Shown here: piece after piece, positions 1,194 through 62,769 of the stretch
How positions within the stretch are numbered: the stretch's first letter is position 1
How the letters are laid out: each line of letters begins with the position of its first letter
The notes under the pieces: generated by a model
Database searches by the model: none
What the model saw: the letters and a program-made list of their open reading frames with translations, nothing else
Told to the model about the DNA's origin: nothing
From: Nonlabens agnitus
Lineage (GTDB): Bacteria; Bacteroidota; Bacteroidia; Flavobacteriales; Flavobacteriaceae
Assembly: GCF_002994045.1 (NCBI RefSeq)
Contig: NZ_MQUC01000003.1
Location: 1,216,501 to 1,280,500, forward strand
Direction of reading: 5' to 3'
DNA: 64,000 nucleotides
Position numbers and translations under genes: made by a program

Positions 1194-1209
1194 CGCTTTC
1201 GCGAAAGCG
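1194..1209. repeat. Iterated 16-bp palindrome, copy 1 (intergenic)
   Basis: Perfect CGCTTTCGCGAAAGCG; symmetry extends to 22 bp (1191-1212). It lies upstream of the LacI gene start, in the divergent intergenic region. Confidence 0.98.
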
Positions 1210-1310
1210 AAACAACCGTTAAAACCTTTATATCTATTTTTACATTATACGCTTATGCGAACAAATATTCGTTATTAATTAATCGATAATATGTTTAAAT
1301 GCATTTATAT

Positions 1311-1355
1311 ATCGTTTAAAAACTATTAAAATGTTATAATGCATATTTTAACGAT
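1311..1355. promoter_or_regulatory. Candidate operator, imperfect inverted repeat
   Basis: ATCGTTTAAAA (1311-1321) and TTTTAACGAT (1346-1355) are inverted copies, one base different in length, separated by 24 nt in an AT-rich region between the LacI regulator and the LamG protein. It is a plausible LacI-family or promoter-proximal site. This is inference only. Confidence 0.3.
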
Positions 1356-1395
1356 TAACTGTGATATATTAGTTGTGTCCTAAAAATTACTAGAT

Positions 1396-4011: not shown

Positions 4012-4014
4012 GCC

Positions 4015-5385
4015 TTACTTAAATCGCTGGATAAGCTCATCGGCAGTGAGTTGGTTTTGCTCACCGGTCTTCATGTTCTTAAGCGTTAGCTTACCAGATT
4101 TAATCTCGTCTTCACCGGCTAGAATCACAAATGGTATATCATTCTTATCTGCATAAGTCATTTGCTTTTTCATTTTCCCGCTGTCTGGATAGAGCTCTGT
4201 TTTGATGCCGCTTTCGCGAAAGCGAAACATCAATTTCATACAGTAACTAGCTTCAACCTCTCCAAAATTGATAAACAATATCTGCACGCCTGCTTTAACG
4301 GTTTCTGGAAAAAGATTCAGTTCTTCCAAGACCAAATAGATGCGGTCCAGCCCAAAGCTGATTCCAACACCACTCATGTCCTTCATTCCAAAAATACCGG
4401 TAAGGTCATCATATCGACCGCCACCACTTATGCTGCCCATAGCCACTCCTGCTGGAGCCGCCACTTCAAAAATGCAGCCGGTATAATAGTTAAGACCTCT
4501 GGCAAGGGTGATGTCAAGATCCAGATGTGTGGTTTTGAGTTCTAACCCAACCAGGTTTTCCTTTATAAATTCCAACTCTGCAATTCCTTGTAGTCCAATG
4601 TTGGAAGACGCCAACAAATTCTTCATCTGACCGATCTTCTCTTCAAAAGAACCATCCAGTTCAAAAACAGGTTGTAGTTTTTCTATCGCTTGTGGGTCAA
4701 TGCCTTTGTCCAGCATTTCCTGCTTCACCTTATCTGCTCCAATTTTATCAAGCTTGTCCAGTGCCACGGTAAAATCAATGAGCTTATCTTCTGCTCCCAT
4801 CATTTGAGCAATACCGGCAAGAACCTTACGATTGTTGATTTTGATCGTGCAACCCTCTAAGCCTAGATCGGTATAAACATCATCAAATAGTTTGATAAAT
4901 TCCACTTCTTGTAGCAATGAATCGCTACCAACAACATCGGCATCACATTGCGTGAATTCTCTAAAGCGACCCTTTTGCGGACGGTCTGCTCGCCACACGT
5001 TCTGGACTTGGTATCTTTTAAAGGGAAACGCAATCTCATTCTGGTGCTGTACCACATAACGCGCAAAAGGTACCGTCAGGTCGTAACGCAAGGCACGGTC
5101 GCTTATTTGCGGTGTGATGACCGATTCATCCTTTGTGGATAGGTCATCGTTATTCACTTTACTCAAATACTCACCATTATTCAAAATTTTGAATATCAAG
5201 CGGTCGCCTTCTTCTCCATATTTACCCAGCAATGTGTCAGAATTTTCAAAACTCGGTGTCTCAATCGGCATGAATCCGTAGGTCTGAAAATGCTTCTTGA
5301 TGGTGCTTATGATATATTCTCTACGAGATACTTCAGTAGGGTTAAAATCTCTAGTTCCTTTAGGTATGGAAGGTTTTTGTGCCAT
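4015..5385 (-). CDS. hisS: Histidyl-tRNA synthetase
   Basis: Class II aminoacyl-tRNA synthetase that charges tRNA-His, 456 residues from the chosen start. Motif 2 (WRADRPQKGRFREFTQCDAD), the histidine-binding ARGLNYYTG segment, GGGRYDDL and motif 3 (GVGISFGLDRI) are all present, followed by an anticodon-binding domain (about 355-456). I chose the ATG at 5385 because the longer frame starts only at TTG and the family begins with MAQKPSIPKGTRDF. A -7 box at 5403-5410 fits this start. One copy of the iterated palindrome (4209-4224) is read in frame as RFRES near the C-terminus. Confidence 0.97.
   Translation of the reverse strand: MAQKPSIPKGTRDFNPTEVSRREYIISTIKKHFQTYGFMPIETPSFENSDTLLGKYGEEGDRLIFKILNNGEYLSKVNNDDLSTKDESVITPQISDRALRYDLTVPFARYVVQHQNEIAFPFKRYQVQNVWRADRPQKGRFREFTQCDADVVGSDSLLQEVEFIKLFDDVYTDLGLEGCTIKINNRKVLAGIAQMMGAEDKLIDFTVALDKLDKIGADKVKQEMLDKGIDPQAIEKLQPVFELDGSFEEKIGQMKNLLASSNIGLQGIAELEFIKENLVGLELKTTHLDLDITLARGLNYYTGCIFEVAAPAGVAMGSISGGGRYDDLTGIFGMKDMSGVGISFGLDRIYLVLEELNLFPETVKAGVQILFINFGEVEASYCMKLMFRFRESGIKTELYPDSGKMKKQMTYADKNDIPFVILAGEDEIKSGKLTLKNMKTGEQNQLTADELIQRFK
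4209..4224. repeat. Iterated palindrome, copy 2 (in hisS)
   Basis: Perfect 16-mer CGCTTTCGCGAAAGCG inside hisS, read on the minus strand as MFRFRESG in the anticodon-binding domain. Confidence 0.98.
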
Positions 5386-5402
5386 GAATTGCAATAAAGA
5401 TG

Positions 5403-5410
5403 CAAATATA
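5403..5410 (-). promoter_or_regulatory. -7 box for hisS
   Basis: On the minus strand this reads TATATTTG, matching Bacteroidota TAnnTTTG, 17 nt upstream of the hisS ATG. Confidence 0.6.
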
Positions 5411-5545
5411 AAACCTTGAGCATAGAACTGAAGTTATGGTGACGGTTATTGTTGAACTATAAAACCAGTCAGTCGAATAACAAACGAGACATTAAATATT
5501 TCTCACTTGTATAAAACAATAAGTATTAAGTAAAAATTCCAGTCT

Positions 5546-5553
5546 TAGATTTG
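5546..5553 (+). promoter_or_regulatory. -7 box for ABC permease
   Basis: TAGATTTG matches TAnnTTTG, 33 nt upstream of the permease ATG at 5587. Confidence 0.55.
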
Positions 5554-5586
5554 TAACTTTTAAACTCATCATTAGTCCTATTAAGC

Positions 5587-6828: not shown

Positions 6829-7405
6829 GATCATCACTCAAGTATATCGTTCTCCTCTGGGCGAACTTACTTTGGGTGTTTTTGAAAATCAACTTTGCTT
6901 ATGTGATTGGACCTATCGTAAGATGCGTGATCAAATCGATCAACGCATTCAAACCTTTTGTCGCGCTACCATGACTGAAGGTGATCATGAATTGATAGAT
7001 CTCGCCATCCAGCAATTGGATCAATACTTCCTTAAAGAACGCACACAATTTGATATCCCATTGCTATTGTGTGGTACGCCATTTCAGCAAAGCGTGTGGG
7101 ACAGCCTACTGCAAATTCCTTATGGAGAAACGGTTTCGTATAGTTCGCTTTCGCGAAAGCGAAATCAAAACAATCTTTCATCACAAACTCAACCTCAGGT
7201 TCTGAACAACGATGTATCCCCTAAAGATGTGCGAGCAGTTGCAGCTGCCAACGGTGCCAATGCAATTTCCATCATCATACCATGCCACCGAGTTATAGGT
7301 AGTGATGGTTCATTGACTGGGTACGCCGGTGGATTGAACGCCAAGAAAAAGTTATTGGAGCTGGAAGGAGTCGATCTTACGCACGGCCAGCAACGGTTAT
7401 TTTAG
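6821..7405 (+). CDS. Methylated-DNA--protein-cysteine methyltransferase
   Basis: Suicide DNA repair enzyme that takes the alkyl group from O6-alkylguanine onto a cysteine. The active-site motif PCHRVIG contains Cys155, and the DNA-binding region (VRAVAAANGANA) precedes it. Relative to the usual family pattern, where the SYSSLA segment is followed within about 10 residues by VRAVAAAN, this 194-residue protein carries some 15-20 extra residues (about 112-136). They begin exactly at the iterated palindrome (7146-7161, read SLSRKR). The gene overlaps the upstream permease by 8 bp and shares a 4-bp stop-codon overlap with the convergent gene at 7402. Confidence 0.93.
   Translation: MSKIITQVYRSPLGELTLGVFENQLCLCDWTYRKMRDQIDQRIQTFCRATMTEGDHELIDLAIQQLDQYFLKERTQFDIPLLLCGTPFQQSVWDSLLQIPYGETVSYSSLSRKRNQNNLSSQTQPQVLNNDVSPKDVRAVAAANGANAISIIIPCHRVIGSDGSLTGYAGGLNAKKKLLELEGVDLTHGQQRLF
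7146..7161. repeat. Iterated palindrome, copy 3 (in methyltransferase)
   Basis: Perfect 16-mer with 20-bp extended symmetry (7144-7163), translated SSLSRKRN. It sits at the edge of an unusual insertion in the protein. Confidence 0.98.
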
Positions 7406-11102: not shown

Positions 11103-12071
11103 ATGTTGAAAGCTGGGGTTCTGGGCGCAGGACATTTGGGTAAAATCCACTTGAAATTATTACAGCAGTCCACGCGTTACGATCTTGTGGGATTTTATGA
11201 TGCTAACGAGTCCTATGCCCGTGAGATTGAAAAAGAGTACGGCTACAGGTACTACAGCAACATGGATGAGCTCATCGCTGCCTGCGATATGGTAGATGTC
11301 GTGACGCCTACCACTTTTCATCACGAGTCTGGTAAAAAGGTTCTTGAAGCTGGTAAGCACCTCTTTATTGAAAAACCCATCACGGTTACCGTTGAAGAGG
11401 CTCAAGAGTTGATATCGCTTGCGCGAAAGCATAATGTCAAAGGCCAGGTAGGACAAGTAGAACGTTTTAATGATGCCTTTAGAACCGTGCAGGACCGCAT
11501 TGAAAATCCCATGTTTATTGAAACACATCGCCTAGCGGAATTCAATCCACGAGGAACCGATGTGAGCGTGGTGCTGGATTTAATGATCCATGATATTGAT
11601 GCGATACTTAGCGTGGTGAAAAGTCCCGTGAAGCATGTGAGTTCCAGTGGCGTTTCCGTCATATCAGAAACTCCAGATATTGCCAATGCGCGCATTGAGT
11701 TCGAAAATGGTTGTGTGGCCAATCTAACTGCCAGCAGGATTAGCCTCAAAAAAATGCGCAAGGCAAGATTTTTCCAGCGCGATGCCTATATCTCTGTCGA
11801 TTTTCTAACCAAGAAGGTAGAAGTTGTTCGTATGAAGGATGCTCCAGAAGTTCCGGGAGATTTTGACATGATCCTTCAAAATGCTGAAGGCATCAAGAAA
11901 CAAATCTACTTTGACAATCCAGACATTACCGAAACCAATGCGATCTTGATGGAACTGGAGACTTTTGCAGATGCCATTGAGGACGACACCGTTCCTGTGG
12001 TTAGTCTGGAAGACGGCACAGCAGCGCTGGACGTTGCGATGCAAGTGATTGAAAACTTCAAGTCCTTGTAA
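11103..12071 (+). CDS. Gfo/Idh/MocA-family oxidoreductase
   Basis: NAD(P)-dependent sugar-type dehydrogenase, 322 residues from the ATG at 11103. The N-terminal Rossmann motif GVLGAGHLGKIHLK and the EKPITVT segment with its family lysine are clear, followed by the C-terminal alpha/beta dimerisation domain. The substrate cannot be read from sequence. A degenerate copy of the iterated palindrome lies inside (11416-11431). The gene begins a co-directional run with hbd, DUF1015 and yggS. I preferred this ATG over the GTG at 11085 because that GTG overlaps the -7 box. Confidence 0.9.
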   Translation: MLKAGVLGAGHLGKIHLKLLQQSTRYDLVGFYDANESYAREIEKEYGYRYYSNMDELIAACDMVDVVTPTTFHHESGKKVLEAGKHLFIEKPITVTVEEAQELISLARKHNVKGQVGQVERFNDAFRTVQDRIENPMFIETHRLAEFNPRGTDVSVVLDLMIHDIDAILSVVKSPVKHVSSSGVSVISETPDIANARIEFENGCVANLTASRISLKKMRKARFFQRDAYISVDFLTKKVEVVRMKDAPEVPGDFDMILQNAEGIKKQIYFDNPDITETNAILMELETFADAIEDDTVPVVSLEDGTAALDVAMQVIENFKSL

Positions 12072-14722: not shown

Positions 14723-15386
14723 AATAGCAGATAATATAGTTCGCTTTCGCGAAAGCGTAGAACCACAAGCCACCCTAGTAGCGGTAAGCAAGACAAAACC
14801 TATAAGCGACCTGCAAGAGGCCTATGATGCTGGACAGCGACACCTAGGTGAGAACAAGATCCAGGAAATGACCGAAAAATGGGAAACGTTGCCCAAGGAC
14901 ATTCACTGGCACATGATAGGTCACACGCAACGTAATAAGGTCAAGTACATGGCGCCTTACGTGCATTTGATTCATTCTGTTGACTCGCCGCGACTGGCCA
15001 AAGAAATCAACAAACAAGCTCAAAAAAACGATCGGGTCATCAATTGCCTATTACAGGTATTCATAGCAGATGAAGAAAGTAAATATGGATTTGACGAGGA
15101 CGAGTTGATGGCATATCTAAACTCTGACGCCTTCAAAAACCTGAAAAACATCAATATTCACGGCCTCATGGGCATGGCTACCTTTACAGATGACAAGGAC
15201 CAAGTAAGAGCAGAATTCAAATCGCTCATGGCGATGTTTGACAAAATAAAATCTGAGCAATTGCTGGATCCTAGACATGAGTTTGACGAACTTTCCATGG
15301 GAATGACGGGTGATTATGAGATCGCTTTAGAAGAAGGCAGTACCATGGTACGCATAGGCAGCGCTATTTTTGGCAGTAGAGATTAA
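14715..15386 (+). CDS. YggS-family PLP-binding protein
   Basis: Pyridoxal-phosphate homeostasis protein (PLPBP/YggS family), 223 residues from the ATG at 14715; an in-frame TTG two codons earlier is less likely. The PLP lysine is K26 in VAVSKTKP. LGENKIQEM, HMIGHTQRNK and LSMGMTGDYEIA complete the alanine-racemase-like barrel signature. The N-terminus carries one iterated palindrome read as VRFRESV (residues 9-15), in the first helix before the PLP strand. It overlaps DUF1015 by 8 bp. Confidence 0.93.
   Translation: MSKIADNIVRFRESVEPQATLVAVSKTKPISDLQEAYDAGQRHLGENKIQEMTEKWETLPKDIHWHMIGHTQRNKVKYMAPYVHLIHSVDSPRLAKEINKQAQKNDRVINCLLQVFIADEESKYGFDEDELMAYLNSDAFKNLKNINIHGLMGMATFTDDKDQVRAEFKSLMAMFDKIKSEQLLDPRHEFDELSMGMTGDYEIALEEGSTMVRIGSAIFGSRD
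14742..14757. repeat. Iterated palindrome, copy 4 (in yggS)
   Basis: Perfect 16-mer, translated VRFRESV nine codons after the yggS start. Confidence 0.98.
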
Positions 15387-17829: not shown

Positions 17830-18343
17830 TGATCAATTGGTAGATGACCTCATTTTTGTAGGCCTTGTCCGTTGCAATCCAGTCTTTTTTTATTCCGCTT
17901 TCGCGAAAGCGTAACTTCTCAAATAATTTCCTGCTCGCCAGATTATCCTCTGCAATTCCTGCATACAATTGGTGCAATCTTAGCCGGTTGAAGCTGTAGT
18001 CAATCATCATTTGCAAACCAGCACTGGCATAGCCTTTTGATCTATCCAGATCTTGCGGAATCACGATGCCAACTCCTGCGCGTTTGTGATAGGGATCAAA
18101 ATCGTAAAGATCCACTACTCCAACAATGCTATCGTCCTTCTTACAAATGGCAAGTCGCAACTGTTTTACTTCATAAATATCCCGATGGGCATTTTCAAGA
18201 TACTCGCGTATGGTAAACTTTGAGTAAGGTGTCAAAGTGTGGCCTACATCCCAAAGCGCTGGATTATTCTCCAGCTGATAGATGTACTCCAGATCTTCTG
18301 GATCTACGGCACGTAGTTTACAAGTTTCAGTTTCTAGGATCAT
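17822..18343 (-). CDS. GNAT-family N-acetyltransferase
   Basis: 173 residues with the RimJ/RimL-type GNAT layout: acetyl-CoA binding loop near VGIVIPQDLDRSKGYAS, and ENLASRKLFEKLRFRESG near the end. The acceptor is unknown. The iterated palindrome (17896-17911) encodes RFRES at the point where the family normally reads GF.E.G. The gene overlaps dapF by 4 bp and mltG by 8 bp. Confidence 0.9.
   Translation of the reverse strand: MILETETCKLRAVDPEDLEYIYQLENNPALWDVGHTLTPYSKFTIREYLENAHRDIYEVKQLRLAICKKDDSIVGVVDLYDFDPYHKRAGVGIVIPQDLDRSKGYASAGLQMMIDYSFNRLRLHQLYAGIAEDNLASRKLFEKLRFRESGIKKDWIATDKAYKNEVIYQLINE
17896..17911. repeat. Iterated palindrome, copy 5 (in GNAT gene)
   Basis: Perfect 16-mer, read on the minus strand as KLRFRESG near the GNAT C-terminus. 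Confidence 0.98.
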
Positions 18344-20759: not shown

Positions 20760-20775
20760 CGCTTTCGCGAAAGCG
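20760..20775. repeat. Iterated palindrome, copy 6 (intergenic)
   Basis: Perfect 16-mer between the HtrA terminator and the GAPDH promoter; symmetry reaches 20 bp. Confidence 0.98.
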
Positions 20776-23607: not shown

Positions 23608-23692
23608 ACCAGATCGCAGGAATTACTTCCACTTAAAATCCTAAAAAAACCAGACTTAACGTTTAGGTATCATTGAATGTATAGGTAATTGA

Positions 23693-23700
23693 TATTTTTG
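23693..23700 (+). promoter_or_regulatory. -7 box of the secreted endonuclease
   Basis: TATTTTTG, 21 nt before the ATG at 23722. A TTG at 23673-23675 lies 17 nt upstream, a fitting -33 element. Confidence 0.65.
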
Positions 23701-23721
23701 CCGAACCCCTTAAAAAAAGCT

Positions 23722-25713
23722 ATGAGAAATTTTTACGTTATATGTATTGTGGTGGTTTTCGCTTTCGCGAAAGCGAGCTCACAAGTAGTCATTAACGAAC
23801 TAGATGTCGACACGCCAAGTACCAACGATAGGCAATTTGTAGAACTCAAAACGGATGAGCCGTTCCAAACCCTAGAAAATATGGTACTCGTTTTCTTTAA
23901 TGGAAGTAATAGCTCCACGACCGGTAATGGTAGAGTATACTATAGTTATGAACTTGATGGATTGACAAGTGATGTCAATGGTTTACTTGTTTTGGGAAGT
24001 TCACTGGTGTCACCAGCCGTTGACGCAAGATTGGCCGAAAGTAATATACAATTGGGTGCAGACGCTGTTGCCATTTACTTTGGTACGGCAGATGATTTTC
24101 CTGACCAGAGTTTTGTACAGCCCAATAACCAAAATCTGATCGATGCACTAGTGTATGATACAGATGATGCAGATGTACAAGTCCTACTTGATGGTCTAGG
24201 TGAAACCGTGCAATACAATGAAAATGAAAACGGTAGAAAAACAACAGAATCCATCCAACGCAAGGCAGATGGAACCTATGAGGTAAAAGCACCTACACCG
24301 CATTCCTTAAACGATGCCACAGAGACGTCCTACATAGGTGTTGATTTTAGAATCACAGCGACTGAGGATTTGAACGAAGGTGACTTTTTTAGTCTCACCT
24401 TTACCTTAACCAGACCTGCAGATCAGGAATTCACCTTAGATTTTAGCCTCAATAATGGAACTTTTGATGAAGCAGATTATACTGGCGTGACAGAAATATT
24501 TATTCCCGCCGGCCAGACTTCACAGCAGTTGGATTTTGAATTAGTGAATGACAATATAGATGAAGGTGATGAATTTATGAGAGTCGATCTAAACGACAAC
24601 CTACCAATAGGCTTTAAGAGAATCAAAGACAATGTGGAGTACGTAGTTATAGATGATGATTTTACCGTAGCAAATTATGGGAATCCAACTACACCTACCT
24701 ACGGTAATGTGAGACCTACCATTCCTGCAGATTATTATGACGAGCTGGAAAACAAGTCCAGTCCAGAATTGGAGCAAGCCATTACCGCGATTATTGCAGA
24801 AACTGGAGTCGTACGCCACCATACGTATGCAGACATCACCACCATTCTTAAAAAAGCTGATGCCAGTGCGCTTAACAGCAATAAAGTATGGCTCATGTAC
24901 TCTGAAACTGAACGTCGTGATGTATTGTTTCAAGATGGTAGTGATGGGTCTGGAAGATGGAACCGAGAGCACGTCTTTCCAAGATCTCGTGGTGGTTACG
25001 ATAGCCTGGAAGATTTAGATGATATCGCAGATGGTATTGACGTTTGGGTAGAAACCAGCGTGGATAGTTTAAGACATGGTAATAGCGACGCCCATCATTT
25101 AAGAGCCACAGACTCTGGAACAAACTCTTCTAGAGGTGATGATAATTTTCCAGAATATAACGGCCCTACAGGCAATCAAGGTTCTTGGCATGGTGACGTG
25201 GCACGATCCATTTTCTATATGACCCTACGTTACAACTACAATGAGTCTCAAATGCTTCAGGTAGTAAATGGTTATCCTGAAAATCGTTTAGGTCAAATAG
25301 GCGATCTTCAAACGCTATTGCAATGGCACCAGGAAGATCCAGTGGATGACTTTGAAATGAATAGAAATAATGTGGTTTATGACTGGCAACGCAATAGAAA
25401 CCCTTTCATAGATCGACCAGAATTGGTAGATTTTATCTTTGGCGATAAGGTTGGACAATCCTTTACGCTTTCTAATACTACAGAGGTATTGGATCAAGTC
25501 AGCATATATCCCAATCCTTCTCGCGGTTTGTTTTATGTCAAAAATATTACAGAACCTTTGACCATGCGAGTTTATGATACCTTAGGTCGTGAAGCTTTAA
25601 CCAAGGAACTTACCAGCGATGCTCCAATACAGCACCAACTTGCCAGTGGTATTTACATGGTACGTTTGAGCGGTGACTCAGGTACTACGGTTAGAAAATT
25701 GATCGTCGAATAA
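23722..25713 (+). CDS. Secreted endonuclease I with T9SS sorting domain
   Basis: 663 residues from the ATG at 23722. The signal peptide ends FAFAKAS and is partly encoded by an iterated palindrome. A lamin-tail-like domain (about 22-195, QVVINELDVDTPSTNDRQFVEL) and a Calx-beta-like repeat (about 205-305) precede the endonuclease I domain (about 340-580), which has the catalytic segment GRWNREHVFPRSRGG and SDAHHLRATD. The last 75 residues are a T9SS sorting domain (YPNPSRGLFYV...SGIYMVRLSG). It probably degrades extracellular DNA for phosphate and nucleosides. Confidence 0.92.
   Translation: MRNFYVICIVVVFAFAKASSQVVINELDVDTPSTNDRQFVELKTDEPFQTLENMVLVFFNGSNSSTTGNGRVYYSYELDGLTSDVNGLLVLGSSLVSPAVDARLAESNIQLGADAVAIYFGTADDFPDQSFVQPNNQNLIDALVYDTDDADVQVLLDGLGETVQYNENENGRKTTESIQRKADGTYEVKAPTPHSLNDATETSYIGVDFRITATEDLNEGDFFSLTFTLTRPADQEFTLDFSLNNGTFDEADYTGVTEIFIPAGQTSQQLDFELVNDNIDEGDEFMRVDLNDNLPIGFKRIKDNVEYVVIDDDFTVANYGNPTTPTYGNVRPTIPADYYDELENKSSPELEQAITAIIAETGVVRHHTYADITTILKKADASALNSNKVWLMYSETERRDVLFQDGSDGSGRWNREHVFPRSRGGYDSLEDLDDIADGIDVWVETSVDSLRHGNSDAHHLRATDSGTNSSRGDDNFPEYNGPTGNQGSWHGDVARSIFYMTLRYNYNESQMLQVVNGYPENRLGQIGDLQTLLQWHQEDPVDDFEMNRNNVVYDWQRNRNPFIDRPELVDFIFGDKVGQSFTLSNTTEVLDQVSIYPNPSRGLFYVKNITEPLTMRVYDTLGREALTKELTSDAPIQHQLASGIYMVRLSGDSGTTVRKLIVE
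23760..23775. repeat. Iterated palindrome, copy 7 (signal peptide)
   Basis: Perfect 16-mer, read FAFAKAS across the end of the signal peptide of the endonuclease. Confidence 0.98.
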
Positions 25714-25795: not shown

Positions 25796-28436
<2,641 letters not shown>

Positions 28437-29318: not shown

Positions 29319-29334
29319 CGCTTTCGCGAAAGCG
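29319..29334. repeat. Iterated palindrome, copy 9 (intergenic)
   Basis: Perfect 16-mer between the divergent LuxR and RelA/SpoT genes. Confidence 0.98.
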
Positions 29335-35382: not shown

Positions 35383-36148
35383 CATTTTTGGACTCATAGG
35401 CGCACGCCTGGACTACAGTTTTTCGAGAGCCTATTTTGGTGAAAAATTCGAAAAGTTGAAGTTGAGCGATCACGAGTACCGCAATTTTGAATTGAGCAGT
35501 GAGGAAGAATTAGTTCGCTTTCGCGAAAGCGTACTCTACGACCAGCAACATCAAACCACTAATGGCAAAAACGAGATCTTACGAGGCCTCAATGTTACCA
35601 TTCCCTATAAACAAAGCATGCTCAAGATTGTGGATCATGTCCACGAAGATGCGGCTGCCATAGGCGCCATAAATACGGTGGTTATTGAGGATAACGTCTG
35701 GACGGGCCATAATACAGATGCCTACGGTTTTGGGAAGTCTTTGGAACCTTTTCTTCCCATCAAGGGAAATGCTCTGATACTGGGTACTGGCGGCGCTTCA
35801 AAAGCTATCGCCTATACTCTGGAAGCTTTGCAGATCCCATATCTTAAAGTAAGTAGGAATCCGCAGGATGATTTTACCATAGGCTATGCATCACTCAATC
35901 AAGATGTGATGCAACAGGTACGACTCATAGTCAATACCACACCTGTAGGAACTCACCCTAATATTGACCAGTGTCCAGCAATTCCCTATGAGCATCTTAC
36001 CAGCGATCATGTACTTTACGATCTGGTCTACAATCCCAGCTTGACCTTATTTATGAAAAAGGGACAACAGCATGGCGCCAAAGTCACCAACGGCCATCAA
36101 ATGCTGGTAAATCAAGCCGAAAAATCTTGGGAACTCTGGAATAAGTGA
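35357..36148 (+). CDS. aroE: Shikimate dehydrogenase
   Basis: 263 residues from the ATG at 35357, which matches the family start (METKQIPRSIFGLIGARLDYSFS). The shikimate-binding lysine is in NVTIPYKQSM and the aspartate in GHNTDAYGFGKSL. The NADP-binding GTGGASKAIAYTL follows, then VNTTPVGTHP. It makes shikimate for aromatic amino acids. The iterated palindrome encodes VRFRESV in a variable segment before NVTIPYK. It overlaps the DUF368 gene by 26 bp. Confidence 0.95.
   Translation: METKQIPRSIFGLIGARLDYSFSRAYFGEKFEKLKLSDHEYRNFELSSEEELVRFRESVLYDQQHQTTNGKNEILRGLNVTIPYKQSMLKIVDHVHEDAAAIGAINTVVIEDNVWTGHNTDAYGFGKSLEPFLPIKGNALILGTGGASKAIAYTLEALQIPYLKVSRNPQDDFTIGYASLNQDVMQQVRLIVNTTPVGTHPNIDQCPAIPYEHLTSDHVLYDLVYNPSLTLFMKKGQQHGAKVTNGHQMLVNQAEKSWELWNK
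35516..35531. repeat. Iterated palindrome, copy 10 (in aroE)
   Basis: Perfect 16-mer, translated ELVRFRESVLYD in a variable loop of AroE. Confidence 0.98.
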
Positions 36149-41747: not shown

Positions 41748-42734
41748 TTAAGTCGTCATTATATCACTCACTCTGATGAGTTCCTTATCGATAGCGGTTT
41801 TACCTTTTACAGCTTTTTCTAGAGGGCACAAAACAATTTTAGTGTCCTGTATTCCTACCATATTATTATAATTGCCATCCATCAAACTTTCAACAGCTTT
41901 AACACCCATACGGCTGGCAAGAACGCGGTCCCAACAAGTTGGCGAGCCACCACGTTGCATGTGTCCTAAAACCGATACACGTACTTCGTATTCTGGAAGA
42001 TTCTGTTCCACATAGTCCTTTAATGCAAAGACATTCTCTCCAGTCTCCACACCTTCGGCAACCACAACGATACTTGATGATTTTCCTGATGCACGGCTGC
42101 GTTTCAAACTTTCTAGCAAACGATCTCTGCCCAGGTTTTCTTCTGGAATAAGAATTTCCTCTGCTCCTGCTCCAACACCGGCATTTAGGGCAATGTTACC
42201 TACATCGCGACCCATAACTTCTACAAAAAAGAGACGGTTATGGGAACTAGCCGTGTCACGTATCTTATCGATCGCATCTACCACTGTATTTAAAGCGGTA
42301 TCATAACCTAATGTTGATGATGTACCATAAATGTCATTGTCAATGGTCCCAGGAATACCCATCACAGGGAAATCATTCTCCTCAGAAAAAATCATGGCTC
42401 CCGTAAAGCTACCGTCACCACCTATGACTACCAGTGCATCAAGACCTTGTTGTTTCGCTTTCGCGAAAGCGATATCACGGCCTTCTTTAGTCCTAAACTC
42501 TTTAGATCGTGCACTTTTTAAGATCGTACCACCTTTATGGATGATGTTATTCACGCTACGTGCATCCATAGGCTTAAAATCACCTTCAATAAGACCTTGA
42601 TACCCTCGATATATTCCTATACATTCCAGTTTGTGAAAAGCACAGGTACGAACAACGGAGCGAATGGCCGCATTCATCCCAGGTGAGTCTCCACCCGAAG
42701 TCATTACTCCTATCTTACGAATGTTTTTTGTCAT
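41748..42734 (-). CDS. pfkA: ATP-dependent 6-phosphofructokinase
   Basis: 328 residues of group I PfkA. GVMTSGGDSPGMNAAIR opens the protein. GGDGSFTGA carries the ATP-binding aspartate, PGTIDNDI the catalytic region, and GHMQRGGSPT the substrate site. It commits fructose 6-phosphate to glycolysis. The iterated palindrome is read AFAKAK in an exposed region (GRDIAFAKAKQQGL). It lies upstream of gapA. Confidence 0.97.
   Translation of the reverse strand: MTKNIRKIGVMTSGGDSPGMNAAIRSVVRTCAFHKLECIGIYRGYQGLIEGDFKPMDARSVNNIIHKGGTILKSARSKEFRTKEGRDIAFAKAKQQGLDALVVIGGDGSFTGAMIFSEENDFPVMGIPGTIDNDIYGTSSTLGYDTALNTVVDAIDKIRDTASSHNRLFFVEVMGRDVGNIALNAGVGAGAEEILIPEENLGRDRLLESLKRSRASGKSSSIVVVAEGVETGENVFALKDYVEQNLPEYEVRVSVLGHMQRGGSPTCWDRVLASRMGVKAVESLMDGNYNNMVGIQDTKIVLCPLEKAVKGKTAIDKELIRVSDIMTT
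42456..42471. repeat. Iterated palindrome, copy 11 (in pfkA)
   Basis: Perfect 16-mer, minus-strand translation DIAFAKAKQQ. Confidence 0.98.
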
Positions 42735-48461: not shown

Positions 48462-49601
48462 TCACAAAGTAGCATTCAATAATTTCATGAACGCACCAAT
48501 CTTACTGGGCTCAAGCCACCTGGTGACAACCACTAGGTCATTCTTACGATCTACCACGATAAAATTCCCGCCAAAACCAGCGGCATAAAACACCTCTTTA
48601 TCCACGCCATCCCATTGTCGTTTGCCATCTGCATTGAGCCACCACATAAAACCGTAATTAGGCTCTGGTGTGGAAGAAGTTGTGGCCATCTTTATCCATT
48701 CTTTGGAGATCAGTTGTTCGTTCTTCCACTTACCGTTATTGGAAAACAGTAAACCAAATCGCGCCATATCTTCAGTATTGATAAACAAACCAGCACCGCT
48801 GTGGCCTCCGCCAGTAACGCTCTTCATTTGCAGACCGTCGATCGTTTCCCATGCGTCATCATAACCGTACCAGCGCCAGGATCTAGAAGCGCCTATCTTG
48901 TCCATAATTCTGTTTCTTAGCACAAGTGGCAGCGGCTCTCTTAAAACTTGTAGTAAACTATAGGCCAGCACATTGACACGCACATCGTTGTATTCCATGA
49001 CGGTACCAGGCGTGGCAGGCGCTGCATATTGCCAGTCATCCACATCACCATCTCGTGGTGGCCGGTCTGCCCAGTCCTTACCGCCATACAAGGTTCCTTG
49101 CCAGGCGCTATTTTGCTGTAATAATTGTCTCCATGTGATTTGGGAATTATGCCTTCCCGCAAAGGTGCCGTCCCATACATAATCAGCTACCGTGTTATTG
49201 ACATTTTTGATCAATCCATCATCCACAGCGAGTCCAGCAACCGTGGATAGGAAACTTTTGGTCACTGAAAATGTCATGTCTACACGCTTAGTGTCGCCCC
49301 AACTTGCTACCAATTTCCCATTCTTTAGAATCATGCCGGCAGGACCGCCACGTTTTTTGGTAGGACCTAAAATCTCATGGAATGGTTCTGATTTAAAACC
49401 GTCCAAAATGGCAATGCGCAAGTCCCTAGAGCCTGAATATTCGTTCGCTTTCGCGAAAGCGATAACATCATCCAGCTTTTCTGGATCCATTCCAGCATCT
49501 TGAACTGAGATTTGCTGCCAGATAGCATGACGCTCTGGAAAATAGGTTTGCTGGGCACTGGTACCAATGGCCATAAGCATAAAAAGGAAAGTTGATTTCA
49601 T
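48462..49601 (-). CDS. CubicO-type serine hydrolase (beta-lactamase family)
   Basis: 379 residues from the ATG at 49601. The longer frame would put 46 odd residues before a good signal peptide (MKSTFLFMLMAIGTSAQQ). The SxxK motif is in MTFSVTKSF and a YxN-type motif in MEYNDVRVN, so it has the class C beta-lactamase/penicillin-binding-protein fold. Substrates in this group range from beta-lactams to esters and D-amino peptides. An iterated palindrome encodes IAFAKAN. Confidence 0.85.
   Translation of the reverse strand: MKSTFLFMLMAIGTSAQQTYFPERHAIWQQISVQDAGMDPEKLDDVIAFAKANEYSGSRDLRIAILDGFKSEPFHEILGPTKKRGGPAGMILKNGKLVASWGDTKRVDMTFSVTKSFLSTVAGLAVDDGLIKNVNNTVADYVWDGTFAGRHNSQITWRQLLQQNSAWQGTLYGGKDWADRPPRDGDVDDWQYAAPATPGTVMEYNDVRVNVLAYSLLQVLREPLPLVLRNRIMDKIGASRSWRWYGYDDAWETIDGLQMKSVTGGGHSGAGLFINTEDMARFGLLFSNNGKWKNEQLISKEWIKMATTSSTPEPNYGFMWWLNADGKRQWDGVDKEVFYAAGFGGNFIVVDRKNDLVVVTRWLEPSKIGAFMKLLNATL
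49446..49461. repeat. Iterated palindrome, copy 12 (in hydrolase)
   Basis: Perfect 16-mer, minus-strand translation DVIAFAKANEY. Confidence 0.98.
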
Positions 49602-49682
49602 AATCTTAAAAATAAGGTTTGTGTCAGAATATCTAGACATCTGAAATCGCCTGAATGCAAACTTTATCCACCGCTTTATCCA

Positions 49683-49690
49683 TAAATTTG
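49683..49690 (+). promoter_or_regulatory. Leaderless -7 box of the FAD protein
   Basis: TAAATTTG, then CGCC, then ATG: 4 nt between box and start. Confidence 0.65.
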
Positions 49691-49694
49691 CGCC

Positions 49695-52566: not shown

Positions 52567-54963
52567 TTACATACCACAACTCCCTATAGGACTACCGTCA
52601 GGAATATCCATCACTGGAATCGCCTTGATGTTTTCGGGATGGTCTTGCGCAGTCTTTATCATGTCGTGCAAAACTACATCGTGATCATCTTTGGAACCCA
52701 GCAGGCGACTGTTAATAGCATCGATTTGTTTCTTGACTTTTGACTCCACATTAAGATTCAGCTGGCTGGAATTATTTGCTATCAAAAGTTTACTCAGATA
52801 CAGTTCCTGTAAACGTCTGGCAATTAAAATTTCATAATCACCAGAAGTTTTAGCATCAAATATCTGATCCGTTAATTGGTTCATCATGTCACCTAATTCC
52901 AGGTTTTTACCATAAATACCTTGTTGTGCGATTCTATTCAATCGGGTAGCGTTAAGCATGAAGTCTATAGTGACTTCGGCGCTGGTGACAGCTGCGGCAA
53001 TGGGATCAAAAGCTACTCCAGTCTCTGATTTAAAACTTTCACGATCTCTATTATATCCATAAGCACGTGGAGGAAAATAGGATAATAAATCATCTGGGAT
53101 TCTAAGGTTTTCTGGTTCTAGCGTTGCCAATAAGGCTTCCAGTGCTGCTACCTGCTCCTTTTTGGAGACGTATTCAAAATTGGCATCACCTTTTATGGCA
53201 TAAGAATAACGCATGCCTCCTATCACCTTGGATGCAGCCTCTACCTGATAGCGATGCGAAAAATAAACCGGTACAAAAACATCTTCCAAAACACTTAAGG
53301 GTTGCCCAGCCGGAATATTATCTAAACCGAATTGCTCCATCGCCACTTTACGAATTTGCATCATACGATTGAGCTCTTCGACGGCGTCCTCGCCGCCATC
53401 CCATAGATGCGCATCTGCATGCGCGCCACTAGCCGCTCTTGCATCGCTGTCACTAATGAATTGGAGATTTTCATATTCTGCCTTTTTGATAATTCTCAAC
53501 AAAAAGTCGTTTTCAGTCTCATTTTCTTCAGGTGTTCCATAAGAATATTGAACAGTCAACTTATCCCATTCGCCTATGCCGGTATCATACGCATCTGCCA
53601 AGGAGATTTTACCATTCACCAAGTCATATTTAGGATGCGGATAATCCATCACACTAGATTGATCACTCACGCTTGCCGCGTAGTTATGTGCAAAACCCAA
53701 CGTGTGACCTACTTCATGAGCACCCAATTGACGTATTCGCGCCAAAGCCATTTTGAGCATTTCTGGAGATTCTTTTCCATTGGCAAAAGGCGCCTCCAAC
53801 ATTCCTTGAGCGAGCATATAGTCCTGGCGTATACGTAAACTACCTAGACTCACGTGTCCTTTGAGGATCTCACCCGTTCGTGGATCTGTGATGGAGCCAC
53901 CATAACTCCAGCCACGTGTACTGCGGTGTACCCATTGGATCAAATTGTACCTCAGGTCCATAGGATCTGCGTCTGCTGGTAGCATTTTGACCTGAAAGGC
54001 ATTGAAATAGCCAGCGCTTTCATAGGCCTGATTCCACCAGCTGGCACCTTCCAGCAGCGCACTGCGCACTGGTTCTGGCGTTCCTGGATCCAGATAGTAG
54101 ATGATAGGCTCTACGGCTTCACTCACAGCTGCCTGCGGATTCTTCTTTTCCAATCTATGTCTGGTGATCCAGCGTTTTTCCATAGGTGTTCCTATAGAGC
54201 TGCTATAATCCATATAACTTGTGTAAAATGATCCAGATCGTGGATGAAAGGCTCTAGGTTCAAAACCATCGTCTGGTAATTCCACAAAGCTGTGGTGTTG
54301 GATGACTGTGACGCTATTCGCATCTGGCGCCACACTTCGCAAATTGCGACCTTTAGGCTCGCCGGTAAAGGTGAGCATCGCTTCAAACTCAACGTTTTTA
54401 GGGAATGCCTTGGTATTTTCCATCCAAAGGGCACTGCGCGATTTATCGATTTTATACGAACCTTCATTACGGGATTTAAGTCGGTCCACTACTCCATGAG
54501 CGTCTTCCAGCAAAAATGGTGTCAGGTCGATCGTGTAATTAGTTTCCTTTGCAGTCTTTTCTTTCTTGTCATTTTTGATCTCAAAACCGTAGAGTACAGA
54601 TCGTGCAAAAGCCTCTTCTACAGACTGGCGCTCTTCATCATTATCTGTAATGGCGCGGTATTTTAGGTTGGGTTGCACGAGCAGCAATTTGTTTCCTGCC
54701 TTGACCCATTTCACGACCACTCCATCGCCCAACTGTCCGCGATCCAGACCTATTTCGTTGGATCCCAATCCTGTAGACAAAGAATGGACGTATAAAAACT
54801 CCTTGTCCAAATCTTTGACTTCCAGCAGGATGGTTCCCTTGCTATCGTCATAGGTGAAGTCATAAAAGCCTTTAAATTGTTGAGGTGGTTGTTGGGAGTT
54901 CGCTTTCGCGAAAGCGAAATTCAAAACCATCAGATAACACGCGAGAGTTGATAGGTATTTCAT
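52567..54963 (-). CDS. Secreted zinc-dependent metalloprotease (DUF5117 type)
   Basis: 798 residues from the ATG at 54963 (upstream TTG rejected). Signal peptide ends NFAFAKANSQ, partly encoded by an iterated palindrome. A DUF5117-like N-terminal domain (FYDFTYDDSKGTILLEV...LYVHSLSTGLGSNEIGLDRGQ) precedes the peptidase domain with HEVGHTLGFAH (HExxHxxGxxH, about residue 412) and a Met-turn SVMDYPHP. These are metzincin-like proteases of unknown target; the protein should act outside the inner membrane. Confidence 0.9.
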   Translation of the reverse strand: MKYLSTLACYLMVLNFAFAKANSQQPPQQFKGFYDFTYDDSKGTILLEVKDLDKEFLYVHSLSTGLGSNEIGLDRGQLGDGVVVKWVKAGNKLLLVQPNLKYRAITDNDEERQSVEEAFARSVLYGFEIKNDKKEKTAKETNYTIDLTPFLLEDAHGVVDRLKSRNEGSYKIDKSRSALWMENTKAFPKNVEFEAMLTFTGEPKGRNLRSVAPDANSVTVIQHHSFVELPDDGFEPRAFHPRSGSFYTSYMDYSSSIGTPMEKRWITRHRLEKKNPQAAVSEAVEPIIYYLDPGTPEPVRSALLEGASWWNQAYESAGYFNAFQVKMLPADADPMDLRYNLIQWVHRSTRGWSYGGSITDPRTGEILKGHVSLGSLRIRQDYMLAQGMLEAPFANGKESPEMLKMALARIRQLGAHEVGHTLGFAHNYAASVSDQSSVMDYPHPKYDLVNGKISLADAYDTGIGEWDKLTVQYSYGTPEENETENDFLLRIIKKAEYENLQFISDSDARAASGAHADAHLWDGGEDAVEELNRMMQIRKVAMEQFGLDNIPAGQPLSVLEDVFVPVYFSHRYQVEAASKVIGGMRYSYAIKGDANFEYVSKKEQVAALEALLATLEPENLRIPDDLLSYFPPRAYGYNRDRESFKSETGVAFDPIAAAVTSAEVTIDFMLNATRLNRIAQQGIYGKNLELGDMMNQLTDQIFDAKTSGDYEILIARRLQELYLSKLLIANNSSQLNLNVESKVKKQIDAINSRLLGSKDDHDVVLHDMIKTAQDHPENIKAIPVMDIPDGSPIGSCGM
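54901..54916. repeat. Iterated palindrome, copy 13 (signal peptide)
   Basis: Perfect 16-mer, read NFAFAKAN at the end of the metalloprotease signal peptide, as in the endonuclease at 23760. Confidence 0.98.
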
Positions 54964-55040
54964 AATTTTAGACAAAACACCTAAAATAAGGATATTCTAA
55001 AAGCTAGATCGTCCCACCACAGATAAATTAAAAATCGATT

Positions 55041-56973: not shown

Positions 56974-56990
56974 AAAGTAATTTAGCCAGT

Positions 56991-58052
56991 ATGAAAAAAT
57001 GGCTGCCGCTCTTACTTTCCATCACTTTATTGGTAGTACAAATTATAATGTATCGCGCACTGCGCCACTTTCCAGAAATTGTGGAGCGCTGGTATAGTAC
57101 GGGCATCTATCCATACATAGGCCGCGCCATGCGTTTTGGATTGGGTTGGATTCCGTTTTCTTTTGGAGATGTTTTTTATGTATTGGTTATTCTGCTCGCC
57201 GTTAGGTGGTTGATCGTACATTTTAAAGAGGTTGTGACGCTTTCGCGAAAGCGATATACCCAGCTATTTGTGACTCTTAATGTTGTACTGGCGTTTTTTC
57301 ATGCAGCTTGGGGTTTGAATTATTACCGTCAACCGCTCCATAAGATTCTGGAACTGGAATCTACCTACACCGATGAGGAATTGCTGAAAGTGACGCGACA
57401 ACTAGTGTACACGTCAAACGAGCTGCACAAACAACTGCAATCTCAAGATAGTCTAGCGGTTGATTTCAAAAGATCTCAAGCCGATTTATTTGAGCTGGCG
57501 CCTTCTGGATTTGAAAATCTAGGATCCGTTGATCCATCATTGACCTATGGACCCAACAGTATAAAAAAATCCTTGCTCACGTTACCGCTCACGTATATGG
57601 GCTACAGCGGTTATCTCAATCCCATGACTGGCGAGGCGCAAACCAATGGCTATATCAACAATTACAAAACACCAGTTCTGATTCTGCATGAAATGTCGCA
57701 TCAATTGGGATTTGCAAAAGAAAATGAGGCCAACTTTATCGCGGTGATTGCGGGTATGAAGCATGTAGATCCATACTTTCAGTACAGTGCGAGTATTTTT
57801 GCCTTGCGCTATTGCCTTAACGATTTATACCTTAAAGATCCTGAAGCCTTTGAACTTTTGAGACCCGAAATAACACCTGGGATTTTTAAGAACTATAAAG
57901 AACTGGACGATTTCTGGGGGCCGTATGATGACAATGTGATCGAGAAAGTTTCTCAGGCCAGTTACAATACGTATTTACAGGCTAACAATCAGCCAGATGG
58001 GATGCGGACGTATTCTTATGTGGTAGCCTTGCTGGTCAATTATTATAAATGA
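56991..58052 (+). CDS. DUF3810 membrane protein
   Basis: 353 residues. About three helices in the first 105 residues are followed by a large external part. The segment LILHEMSHQLGFAKENEANF contains an HExxH-type site (HEMSH), the zinc-metallopeptidase hallmark of DUF3810. It is probably an inner-membrane protease; no substrate is known. The palindrome (57238-57253) encodes TLSRKR at the end of a membrane segment. Confidence 0.85.
   Translation: MKKWLPLLLSITLLVVQIIMYRALRHFPEIVERWYSTGIYPYIGRAMRFGLGWIPFSFGDVFYVLVILLAVRWLIVHFKEVVTLSRKRYTQLFVTLNVVLAFFHAAWGLNYYRQPLHKILELESTYTDEELLKVTRQLVYTSNELHKQLQSQDSLAVDFKRSQADLFELAPSGFENLGSVDPSLTYGPNSIKKSLLTLPLTYMGYSGYLNPMTGEAQTNGYINNYKTPVLILHEMSHQLGFAKENEANFIAVIAGMKHVDPYFQYSASIFALRYCLNDLYLKDPEAFELLRPEITPGIFKNYKELDDFWGPYDDNVIEKVSQASYNTYLQANNQPDGMRTYSYVVALLVNYYK
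57238..57253. repeat. Iterated palindrome, copy 14 (in DUF3810)
   Basis: Perfect 16-mer, translated VVTLSRKRYTQ just after a membrane helix. Confidence 0.98.
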
Positions 58053-58170: not shown

Positions 58171-58342
58171 GACAGAGATCAAATCAAAAATCTAAAATCA
58201 TTAATCCACTATCGTCAATCTTCAATGGTAACCGCCATATTCGTTTTGTAGGAAATTCTAACCACGGATTAGTTCACAATGAGATCACCTATTTAATTGT
58301 GATCAGATTGCTATCTTTAAAGCTTAAATAAATCATTTATAC

Positions 58343-61309: not shown

Positions 61310-61314
61310 ACAGA

Positions 61315-61374
61315 TGAACTTGAACTTGAACTTGAACTCGAACCTGAATTTGAATTTGAATTTGAATTTGAAAT
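61315..61374 (+). repeat. Hexanucleotide tandem repeat
   Basis: Ten units of 6 bp: four TGAACT, one CGAACC, four TGAATT, one TGAAAT. Within each block the units are identical. It begins 6 bp after the stop of the amidohydrolase and ends 90 bp before the next ATG. Confidence 0.9.
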
Positions 61375-61464
61375 ATCAAGTTTGGTTTGTTACAAAGAAT
61401 TACAGGAAATAAAACATATATAGAAATTCTGAATCTGGGAAACTGGATTTGTAAATTATAAAGA

Positions 61465-62769
61465 ATGAAAAAACTAATATATATCGCAAGCTTGCTCGTC
61501 GCGGCGACTGGCTTTGCACAACAGGCACCGGCACCCGTGCAAAAAACGGCCGTGCGTATCATGAATGGTACGGCACATTTGGGTAACGGTCAGGTCATTG
61601 AGAATTCGGTTATTGAATTTGAAGATGGTAAGTTGACTATTGTTGGTGATGCCACCACTATGAGACTCGCAGCACCTAAAGGCGAAGTGATCGATGCCAG
61701 CGGCAAACATATCTATCCAGGAATGATCGCGGCAAACACGACGCTGGGATTGGTAGAGGTTGACGCTGTAGGTGCCAGTGATGACGAGCGTGAGATAGGA
61801 ACCTACAATCCGCACATACGTAGCATTATCGCCTACAATGCAGAAAGTAAGATCGTAGAAACCATGCGTCCCAACGGGATACTACTGGCACAGATCACAC
61901 CACGTGGTGGTCGTGTTTCGGGTAAATCCAGTGTGGTGCACATGGACGCTTGGAACTGGGAAGATGCCGCCGTACGCATGGACGATGGTATCCACGTGAA
62001 CTGGCCGCGCAGCTTTGCCCGTTCTGGTTCCTGGCCCAACTATGGACCTATCGAACCGGCTAAGGATTATGACGAGCAGGTAGAAGAATTACGCCTGTTT
62101 CTCAACAAGGCCAAGGCCTATGCCAAAACTAAAAATCCAGACAATGTGGATTTAAAACTACAGGCGATGGGAACGGCCATGGCAGGAACGACTAATATGT
62201 ACGTTCATGTGAGTGGTGAGAAAGCGGTGATTGACGTTCTCGCTTTCGCGAAAGCGAACAACCTGACCAACAATCTCGTACTGGTAGGCGCAGAAGGATC
62301 TGAAAAGATCGCCAAAGACATCGCTGCCGCTGGCGTGCCTGTACTTGCCGCACGTGTGCACAGCTTGCCGTCCAGAGACGATGAGGATTATGACATGCCG
62401 TACAAATTCCCGAAGCTGCTGGCCGATGCTGGTGTTTTGGTAGGTCTGGAAAACTCAGGTAGCATGGAACGCCACCAGGTGCGTAACGTGCCTTTTTATG
62501 CGGGCACCGTCGCGGGTTTTGGGCTGGATATCGAGAAGGCGTTGATGATGGTGACGCTGAATCCCGCCAAGATTTTGGGCATTGATAAGGAGTACGGCTC
62601 GCTGGAACAAGGCAAGAGCGCGACCCTATTTATCTCTGAAGGCAATGCGCTGGACATGAGAACCAATAAGTTGACCAGAGCCTTTATCGATGGTCGTGAT
62701 GTCTCACTGGACACGCGCCAGAAGGAACTGTATGAACGCTATATGGAGAAATACTCGCGCGAGGATTAA
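61465..62769 (+). CDS. Amidohydrolase-family protein without HxH
   Basis: 434 residues with a signal peptide (about 1-18, ending TGFAQQ). The family strands are recognisable (VIENSVIEFEDGKLTIVGD, and GSLEQGKSATLFISEGN at the end), but where active members have HxH it reads YPGMIAANTTLG. It corresponds to the first module of the double protein at 58343, which also lacks that site. It may be a structural partner or an inactive paralogue. One palindrome encodes LAFAKAN. A strong terminator follows. Confidence 0.8.
   Translation: MKKLIYIASLLVAATGFAQQAPAPVQKTAVRIMNGTAHLGNGQVIENSVIEFEDGKLTIVGDATTMRLAAPKGEVIDASGKHIYPGMIAANTTLGLVEVDAVGASDDEREIGTYNPHIRSIIAYNAESKIVETMRPNGILLAQITPRGGRVSGKSSVVHMDAWNWEDAAVRMDDGIHVNWPRSFARSGSWPNYGPIEPAKDYDEQVEELRLFLNKAKAYAKTKNPDNVDLKLQAMGTAMAGTTNMYVHVSGEKAVIDVLAFAKANNLTNNLVLVGAEGSEKIAKDIAAAGVPVLAARVHSLPSRDDEDYDMPYKFPKLLADAGVLVGLENSGSMERHQVRNVPFYAGTVAGFGLDIEKALMMVTLNPAKILGIDKEYGSLEQGKSATLFISEGNALDMRTNKLTRAFIDGRDVSLDTRQKELYERYMEKYSRED
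62241..62256. repeat. Iterated palindrome, copy 15 (in amidohydrolase)
   Basis: Perfect 16-mer, translated VLAFAKANNL. Confidence 0.98.

What the first reader, a model, noticed from the sequence alone, without database searches (positions are those of the whole stretch)
1194..62256. Perfect 16-bp palindrome iterated 15 times in 64 kb
CGCTTTCGCGAAAGCG occurs exactly at 1194, 4209, 7146, 14742, 17896, 20760, 23760, 26795, 29319, 35516, 42456, 49446, 54901, 57238 and 62241. By chance a given 16-mer would be expected about 1.5e-5 times in 64 kb. Twelve copies are inside genes, all in frame: AFAKA six times (endonuclease, katG, pfkA, hydrolase, metalloprotease, amidohydrolase), RFRES four times (hisS, yggS, GNAT, aroE), LSRKR twice (methyltransferase, DUF3810). 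It behaves like HIP1 of cyanobacteria or a DNA-uptake or nucleoid-organising site, with an unknown reader.
Basis: partly seen in the sequence, partly recalled or inferred. Interest (0 to 1): 0.85.

Follow-up and report, generated by a model that had tools for sequence, protein, structure and literature searches.

The report
Genome-wide palindromic DNA signal in Nonlabens
Two groups of marine bacteria carry hundreds of evenly spaced copies of one exact palindromic DNA word, kept for its DNA sequence even inside genes, most likely a self-recognition tag read by a still unknown protein, perhaps during uptake of DNA from relatives.

Summary
The genome holds 676; all 22 other Nonlabens searched hold 180-737, all 18 Dokdonia 138-711; among other genera drawn from the family only G234 (153) exceeds 13. 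Synonymous shuffles give 0.365 copies in genes against 60 seen. The site is larger than reported: a strict 14-bp core plus mirror-symmetric, C-poor/GT-rich flanks of about 30 bp. It arose by substitution, not insertion, in the one gene examined. Cores are identical at aligned orthologous places in 40 of 45 cases versus 46 of 1559 control 14-mers; identity drops from 0.96 to 0.68 within 5 bp. Sites avoid close neighbours, favour intergenic DNA, and are missing from a defence island. This matches the uptake sequences of Haemophilus and Neisseria, but it is palindromic, in Bacteroidota, and most carriers lack a type IV pilus ATPase. Best guess: an uptake/self-recognition signal (0.45).

The parts
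1194..1209 (.). exact 16-bp palindrome, intergenic
   Evidence: same place in G007, G020, G019, G008 and core kept in G022
4209..4224 (.). exact palindrome in hisS (RFRES)
   Evidence: exact in 14 of 17 other Nonlabens fetched and in G234
7146..7161 (.). exact palindrome in ORF 6821-7405 (LSRKR)
   Evidence: exact in G007, G020, G018, G019 and one outer mismatch in G002, G003, G011
11416..11431 (.). near copy with 2 mismatches (doubtful member)
14742..14757 (.). exact palindrome in ORF 14709-15386 (RFRES)
17896..17911 (.). exact palindrome in ORF 17822-18343 (RFRES)
20760..20775 (.). exact palindrome, intergenic
23760..23775 (.). exact palindrome in ORF 23689-25713, residue 24 (AFAKA)
26795..26810 (.). 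exact palindrome in ORF 25796-28066 (AFAKA)
29319..29334 (.). exact palindrome, intergenic
35516..35531 (.). exact palindrome in ORF 35318-36148 (RFRES)
   Evidence: exact in G014
42456..42471 (.). exact palindrome in ORF 41748-42734 (AFAKA)
   Evidence: not conserved in G014
49446..49461 (.). exact palindrome in ORF 48462-49739 (AFAKA)
54901..54916 (.). exact palindrome in ORF 52567-54975, residue 20 (AFAKA)
57238..57253 (.). exact palindrome in ORF 56991-58052 (LSRKR)
62241..62256 (.). exact palindrome in ORF 61465-62769 (AFAKA)
4179..4254 (.). example of the extended site: core plus about 30 bp each side, C-poor/GT-rich on the 5' side of each strand; the other copies have the same layout on average
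   Evidence: averages over sites, not shown copy by copy

Best explanation
Shown: each copy is one instance of a two-fold symmetric DNA site, a strict 14-bp core GCTTTCGCGAAAGC, a less strict outermost C/G pair, and about 30 bp of weakly specified flank on each side; it is kept as DNA, not as protein or RNA, at constant places. Inferred: a symmetric protein reads it, and the site is a DNA-uptake (self-recognition) signal of natural transformation. Fragments that carry it are taken up preferentially from relatives and recombined in, so sites spread and are maintained by this bias, come to be spaced by roughly the length of transferred fragments, sit in permissive places, and are missing from newly acquired DNA. 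The receptor is unknown and is probably not a type IV pilus protein.
For: Same features as published for uptake sequences. [quoted passage not shown] PMC1626085 (passages seen) calls this the puzzling hallmark of USS and DUS, unlike regulator sites. (2) Origin by substitution without gaps: hisS KLRAAG/KLRANG in motif-free outgroups, RFRESG in carriers; the same test is in PMC1626085. (3) Short gaps avoided: 2 of 93 gaps under 1 kb, 16.1 expected, 0 of 20000 simulations as low; PMC1626085 says USS and DUS lie more regularly than random. (4) Intergenic excess 30 of 93 (8.2 expected), 20 of 54 (4.5), 11 of 26 (2.0). (5) Core identical at aligned orthologous places 40 of 45, control 46 of 1559, with flanks as divergent as elsewhere (0.679 to 0.746 within 60 bp); PMC2397512 (passages) reports conserved DUS in slightly more divergent surroundings. 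(6) Absent from a Wadjet/nSTAND island. (7) Clade dialects: the outermost base is loose, all 14 mismatches of 15 G022 sites lie there, and the base next to it differs between genera. (8) Core plus weak flanks, as USS has AT-rich flanks. (9) Eroded in one relative, G234: 6 exact, 9, 5 and 4 with 1-3 mismatches. ComEC present in 22 of 22 genomes examined, carriers and non-carriers. Two Riemerella species of this family are naturally competent and prefer their own DNA (PMC7965970, passages and Discussion).
Against: No competence of Nonlabens or Dokdonia is known to me and one search listed none in its top 15. No uptake sequence recorded by these papers is palindromic. A full-length pilus/T2SS ATPase (PF00437 over cut-off) is in only 2 of 22 genomes, G000 and motif-poor G372, so the uptake machine of Haemophilus and Neisseria is missing. 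Density is about 1 per 4.7 kb, not 1 per kb. Low-GC phage contigs carry sites with the same flanks, more than expected for pure transformation drive unless they are long-resident prophages. The GT/AC strand asymmetry of the flanks has no explanation in this model. Reader unidentified.
Confidence: 0.45

Rival explanations
1. Binding site of a chromosome-organising protein or a preferred topoisomerase site: a cytoplasmic symmetric protein binds every few kb and shapes or protects the nucleoid.
For: Two-fold symmetric site with wide footprint; under-dispersed counts, variance/mean 0.60 over 23 segments of 20 kb; avoidance of short gaps; resident temperate phages also carry it.
Against: No trend with distance from parB (rho -0.11, p 0.62); no consistent extra ParB in carriers; known nucleoid proteins tolerate degenerate sites (recalled), while here perfect copies outnumber singly mismatched ones 93 to 21; sites forced amino-acid changes in hisS, a high cost for one of about 700 redundant sites.
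Confidence: 0.24
2. Recombination signal of the Chi type: the palindrome stops or switches a nuclease-helicase from either side, and the GT-rich 5' flank of each strand is where RecA is loaded.
For: GT-rich flank lies 5' of the core on both strands, which is where RecA would be loaded on a 3'-ended strand (RecA preference for GT-rich DNA is recalled); density 1 per 4.7 kb is near that of Chi in E. coli (recalled); phages carry it.
Against: 14-16 bp palindrome is longer than known Chi sites of 5-8 nt, which are asymmetric (recalled); positional conservation of single sites is not typical of Chi; recombination enzymes not examined here.
Confidence: 0.13
3. HIP1-like site maintained by an orphan methyltransferase and methyl-directed mismatch repair.
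For: Iterated palindrome with mostly palindromic extension, as HIP1 (PMC4390886); contains TCGCGA and CGCG.
Against: No PF00145 in 5 of 12 motif-rich genomes, no PF01555 in 5 of 14, neither in G009; TTCGCGAA outside the motif is not enriched: 111 of 116 occurrences are in motif copies. Other methyltransferase classes not tested.
Confidence: 0.08
4. A mobile or inserted mini-palindrome, or an RNA hairpin.
For: Many copies; it can fold as a short hairpin; in the rpoB-rpoC spacer it sits where some other genera have hairpins.
Against: No insertion gap in hisS; no shared sequence beyond the core; flanks do not covary as a longer stem at the symmetric register (z -0.5 to 0.1; two off-register tests reached z 2.9 and 2.4, of 20 made); flanks are mirror-symmetric whatever the gene orientation and between genes too.
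Confidence: 0.02

Closest known systems
USS of Pasteurellaceae and DUS of Neisseriaceae (DNA uptake sequences)
   Same: Hundreds of copies, perfect copies outnumber near copies, arose by substitution, regular spacing, intergenic preference, positional conservation, absent from new DNA, clade dialects, weak flanks around a strict core (compared with passages of PMC1626085, PMC2397512, PMC7811141).
   Different: Perfect two-fold palindrome with two symmetric flanks, 14-16 bp instead of 9-12, density about 1 per 4.7 kb instead of about 1 per kb, Bacteroidota, no pilus ATPase in most carriers, carried by some phages, uptake not tested.
HIP1 (GCGATCGC) and alternate HIPs of cyanobacteria
   Same: Iterated palindrome in and between genes, mostly symmetric extensions (PMC4390886 section 2.4), unknown function.
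   Different: Twice as long, far sparser, wide biased flanks, no universal methyltransferase among the two classes tested.
parS (ParB) and Noc sites
   Same: 16-bp palindromes with TTT...AAA halves (recalled).
   Different: Hundreds of copies all round the chromosome; the single chromosomal ParB occurs with and without the motif; a separate parS-like 14-mer palindrome GTTTCACGTGAAAC occurs twice in the own sample.
Chi sites
   Same: Similar density to E. coli Chi (recalled); GT-rich neighbourhood.
   Different: Palindromic, 14-16 bp, positions conserved between species.

Membership tests
DNA uptake sequence (USS/DUS) | Genome-wide excess of one exact short word | tested here: met
   676 copies, reversed control 0; synonymous shuffles 0.365 vs 60
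[quoted passage not shown]
   93 vs 21 own; 54 vs 6 G002+G014; 26 vs 5 G250; not in G022 (5 vs 6) and G234 (6 vs 9)
DNA uptake sequence (USS/DUS) | Origin by substitution, not insertion | tested here: met
   hisS only, one gene, 20 relatives plus own
DNA uptake sequence (USS/DUS) | Distribution more regular than random | tested here: met
   2 of 93 gaps <1 kb vs 16.1; the coefficient of variation of gaps alone is not significant (0.87 vs 0.98, P 0.11) because of motif-free islands
DNA uptake sequence (USS/DUS) | Preferential uptake or transformation of DNA that carries it | not testable with these tools
   needs an experiment
DNA uptake sequence (USS/DUS) | Type IV pilus-like uptake machine with a cognate receptor | tested here: not met
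   PF00437 over cut-off in 2 of 22 genomes only; receptor not sought
DNA uptake sequence (USS/DUS) | Under-represented in newly acquired DNA | tested here: inconclusive
   0 in a 20-kb defence island, but present in a mobile-looking copper cluster of other genera and in phages
HIP (highly iterated palindrome) | Iterated palindrome at high frequency | tested here: met
HIP (highly iterated palindrome) | Cognate DNA methyltransferase in the carriers | tested here: not met
   for PF00145 and PF01555 only; G009 has neither
parS/Noc site | ParB-family paralog present in carriers and absent elsewhere | tested here: not met
   22 of 22 have ParB; long extra copies in G014, G019 and also in motif-poor G352, G145
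Chi site | Recognised by RecBCD/AddAB, one orientation | not tested
   enzymes not searched; the site has no orientation

The most novel reading that the evidence does not exclude
The first palindromic DNA-uptake or self-recognition signal, and the first in Bacteroidota, read as a symmetric site of about 70 bp by a homodimeric receptor of a pilus-independent DNA import machine, shared by Nonlabens and Dokdonia.
Probability: 0.38. Interest if true: 0.92.

Novelty: new variant of a known kind. Interest (0 to 1): 0.82.

Why it matters
It is a strong natural signal, maintained in two genera, whose reader is unknown. If it is an uptake sequence, it opens transformation and its self-preference in Bacteroidota, where how DNA crosses the outer membrane is unclear, to direct test with a defined 70-bp oligonucleotide. 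If it is not, a sequence-specific system spans the whole chromosome of these bacteria and has no known counterpart. Either way the site makes a clean bait for finding the protein, and may be a practical handle for transforming these marine bacteria.

Tried and rejected
ParB/Noc paralog as reader: PF02195 in 22 genomes, no consistent extra copy. C5 methyltransferase PF00145 (20 genomes) and N6/N4 methyltransferase PF01555 (22 genomes): not universal in carriers. Pilus ATPase PF00437: absent over cut-off from 20 of 22. Dialects with the same outer arms in other genera: CGCTTNNGCNNAAGCG in 397 genomes, none above 17 outside Nonlabens, G234 and G250. Extended hairpin: no covariation in register. 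RNA-level reading: flanks mirror-symmetric in coding and intergenic sites. Helical periodicity of the flanks: about 10.5-11 bp leads in G002+G014 only; elsewhere a 3-bp (codon) period leads, so not claimed. Second palindrome in G234 (TGCCTGCCGGCAGGCA): two of the four copies lie in a local repeat and the flanks differ, dropped.

What failed or was weak: tree used wrongly oriented loci and is replaced; 4 of 20 stretches did not exist; synteny with the window ends after about 10-12 kb for the distant species, so many fetched stretches did not align; only G007 covers 12 of 15 sites (12 of 12 identical, but it is about 95% identical overall). Own sites against Dokdonia: 1 aligned core, not identical, so positional conservation between the two genera rests on rpoB-rpoC spacers that do not align as sequence, and against G234 on hisS. 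Skew to gene starts holds for own (25 of 63 in the first fifth) and G002+G014 (13 of 34) but not G250 (3 of 15). Literature: no paper found on this motif, all limited to the held open-access library. Genes found only in carriers were not looked for genome-wide.

Full report
What is there. The 15 exact copies are at the stated coordinates, with one near copy at 11416, in the stated frames. The window is G000:C4:1216501-1280500 of a 3.2-Mb genome with 676 exact copies. G250 is Dokdonia sinensis by the same argument (483439, NZ_REFV01000001.1), so its genus code g225 is taken as Dokdonia.

Distribution. All 22 other Nonlabens genomes searched carry 180-737 copies; all 18 genomes of g225 carry 138-711. 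In 397 genomes of the family, 48 have a match; outside those two genera only G234 (153) has more than 13. Of the 23 genomes from other families of the order, none has a copy. A degenerate form of the word finds no other rich genus. In an rpoB tree Nonlabens is one clade (9 rows, 100/100), and G250 and G234 are sisters (96/92) next to motif-poor G188; the two carrier lineages are not sisters in this one-gene tree, but the separating branch is weak (80/73). So the signal is either older and widely lost, or arose or was transferred twice.

Anatomy. In 464 kb of own sequence there are 93 exact, 21, 8 and 5 copies with 1, 2 and 3 mismatches, and 15 of the 21 single mismatches are at the outermost base. 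In G022 all 14 mismatches among 15 sites are there, so the strict core is the 14-mer GCTTTCGCGAAAGC. Of 116 TTCGCGAA in the sample, 111 belong to the 12-bp heart of the motif. Beyond the core, the 5' flank of each strand is poor in C (0.05 in the nearest five bases, 0.21-0.22 far away) and rich in G and T; the bias fades by about 30 bp. It is present in Nonlabens and Dokdonia contigs and absent around the 13 other sites. Its per-position pattern is the same on both sides whatever the gene orientation, and is stronger between genes (90 coding, 50 intergenic sites). The flanks do not covary as an extended stem in register. This is what a symmetric protein on double-stranded DNA, about 70 bp, would leave; that inference is mine.

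Selection acts on the DNA. Synonymous shuffles of 374 genes give 0.365 copies on average and at most 2, against 60. In hisS the site is exact in 14 of 17 other Nonlabens fetched (of 22 known) and in G234. Two motif-free outgroups have KLRAAG or KLRANG where carriers have RFRESG, with no gap; G016 has kept RFRESG with drifted codons, and G003 and G011 have RFRDNG. So the site arose by substitutions that changed the protein. Codon identity, given the same amino acid, is 0.78 over the site and 0.475 elsewhere; one window at the gene start is higher still. Across 16 species, own cores are identical in 40 of 45 aligned cases, controls 46 of 1559; without hisS, 27 of 29; with the contigs that had been fetched by the motif itself, 49 of 57 versus 54 of 1913. 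These figures are conditional on alignment. Identity is 0.962 in the site and 0.679 to 0.746 within the next 60 bp, against 0.706 to 0.764 further away. The rpoB-rpoC spacer carries an exact site in 8 of 9 Nonlabens (the ninth, G022, keeps the core), an exact one in G250 and a one-mismatch one in G234; none of the other 19 genomes has it there.

Layout. In the first 500 kb of the main contig 2 of 93 gaps are under 1 kb, where 16.1 are expected (0 of 20000 simulations as low); the coefficient of variation alone is not significant, since four gaps exceed 15 kb. Counts per 20 kb are under-dispersed (variance/mean 0.60, 23 segments) and do not depend on distance from parB. Sites are 3.7 to 5.5 times commoner between genes than expected with a mechanical ORF caller. 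A 20-kb stretch within a motif-free gap holds a Wadjet system and an nSTAND-like protein.

Mobile DNA. Some other genera hold 1-6 copies with recurring spacings. In G122 these lie in a copper-efflux cluster (RND pump, outer-membrane factor, multicopper oxidase, P-type ATPase, membrane-fusion protein); related DNA in G131, G352 and G033 is 70-85% alike, with sites at matching places. I read this as export from carriers by horizontal transfer, which was not tested. Of 41 viral stretches with the word, 23 distinct sites on low-GC contigs show the flank bias (C 0.09, background 0.20) and 11 on higher-GC contigs do not. Proteins of three such stretches are phage structural proteins, and one stretch has an integrase.

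How it most likely works. The list of features (more perfect than near copies, origin by substitution, regular spacing, intergenic preference, positional conservation in permissive surroundings, clade dialects, weak flanks, erosion in a relative) is the published list for DNA uptake sequences (passages of PMC1626085, PMC2397512, PMC7811141). PMC1626085 stresses that such a strong consensus is unlike sites of regulatory proteins. I therefore favour an uptake or self-recognition signal kept by transformation drive, at 0.45. Against it stand the palindrome, the lower density, the missing pilus ATPase and the phage sites. ComEC is present in all 22 genomes examined, carriers or not, so it does not discriminate. 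Natural competence with preference for own DNA is reported for Riemerella in the same family (PMC7965970). The main rivals are a chromosome-organising or topoisomerase site, and a Chi-like recombination signal, for which the GT-rich flank is suggestive. A HIP1-type methyltransferase is unlikely.

Noticed in passing
L046 (G000:C4:300001-320000): Motif-free stretch with a Wadjet system (JetD and an SMC-like JetC, DUF3375) and an nSTAND/NACHT-like protein with a weak Mrr-like part; the neighbouring gaps without motif run to about 353 kb.
   Followed up: partly
G000:C4:336408-337520: The only full T2SSE (pilus/secretion) ATPase hit in the own genome lies in a motif-free gap; of 22 genomes only G372 has another over the cut-off.
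   Followed up: no
L059-L063: Copper-efflux cluster shared by several Flavobacteriaceae genera at 70-85% DNA identity, carrying motif copies at matching places.
   Followed up: partly
L200, L215, L232 and other IMG/VR stretches: Low-GC phage contigs carry the motif with the same flank bias as the host.
   Followed up: partly
L244-L273, rpoB-rpoC spacer: Several other genera have unrelated inverted repeats in the spacer where Nonlabens and Dokdonia sinensis have the motif.
   Followed up: no
L050, L053 (G234): Another 16-bp palindrome, TGCCTGCCGGCAGGCA, 4 copies in 120 kb; two lie in a local repeat.
   Followed up: partly
window 61315-61372: Tandem repeat of TGAACT, 9.7 copies, close to the start of the ORF 61465-62769.
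   Followed up: no
window 32-106: tRNA-Met (cat) gene.
   Followed up: no
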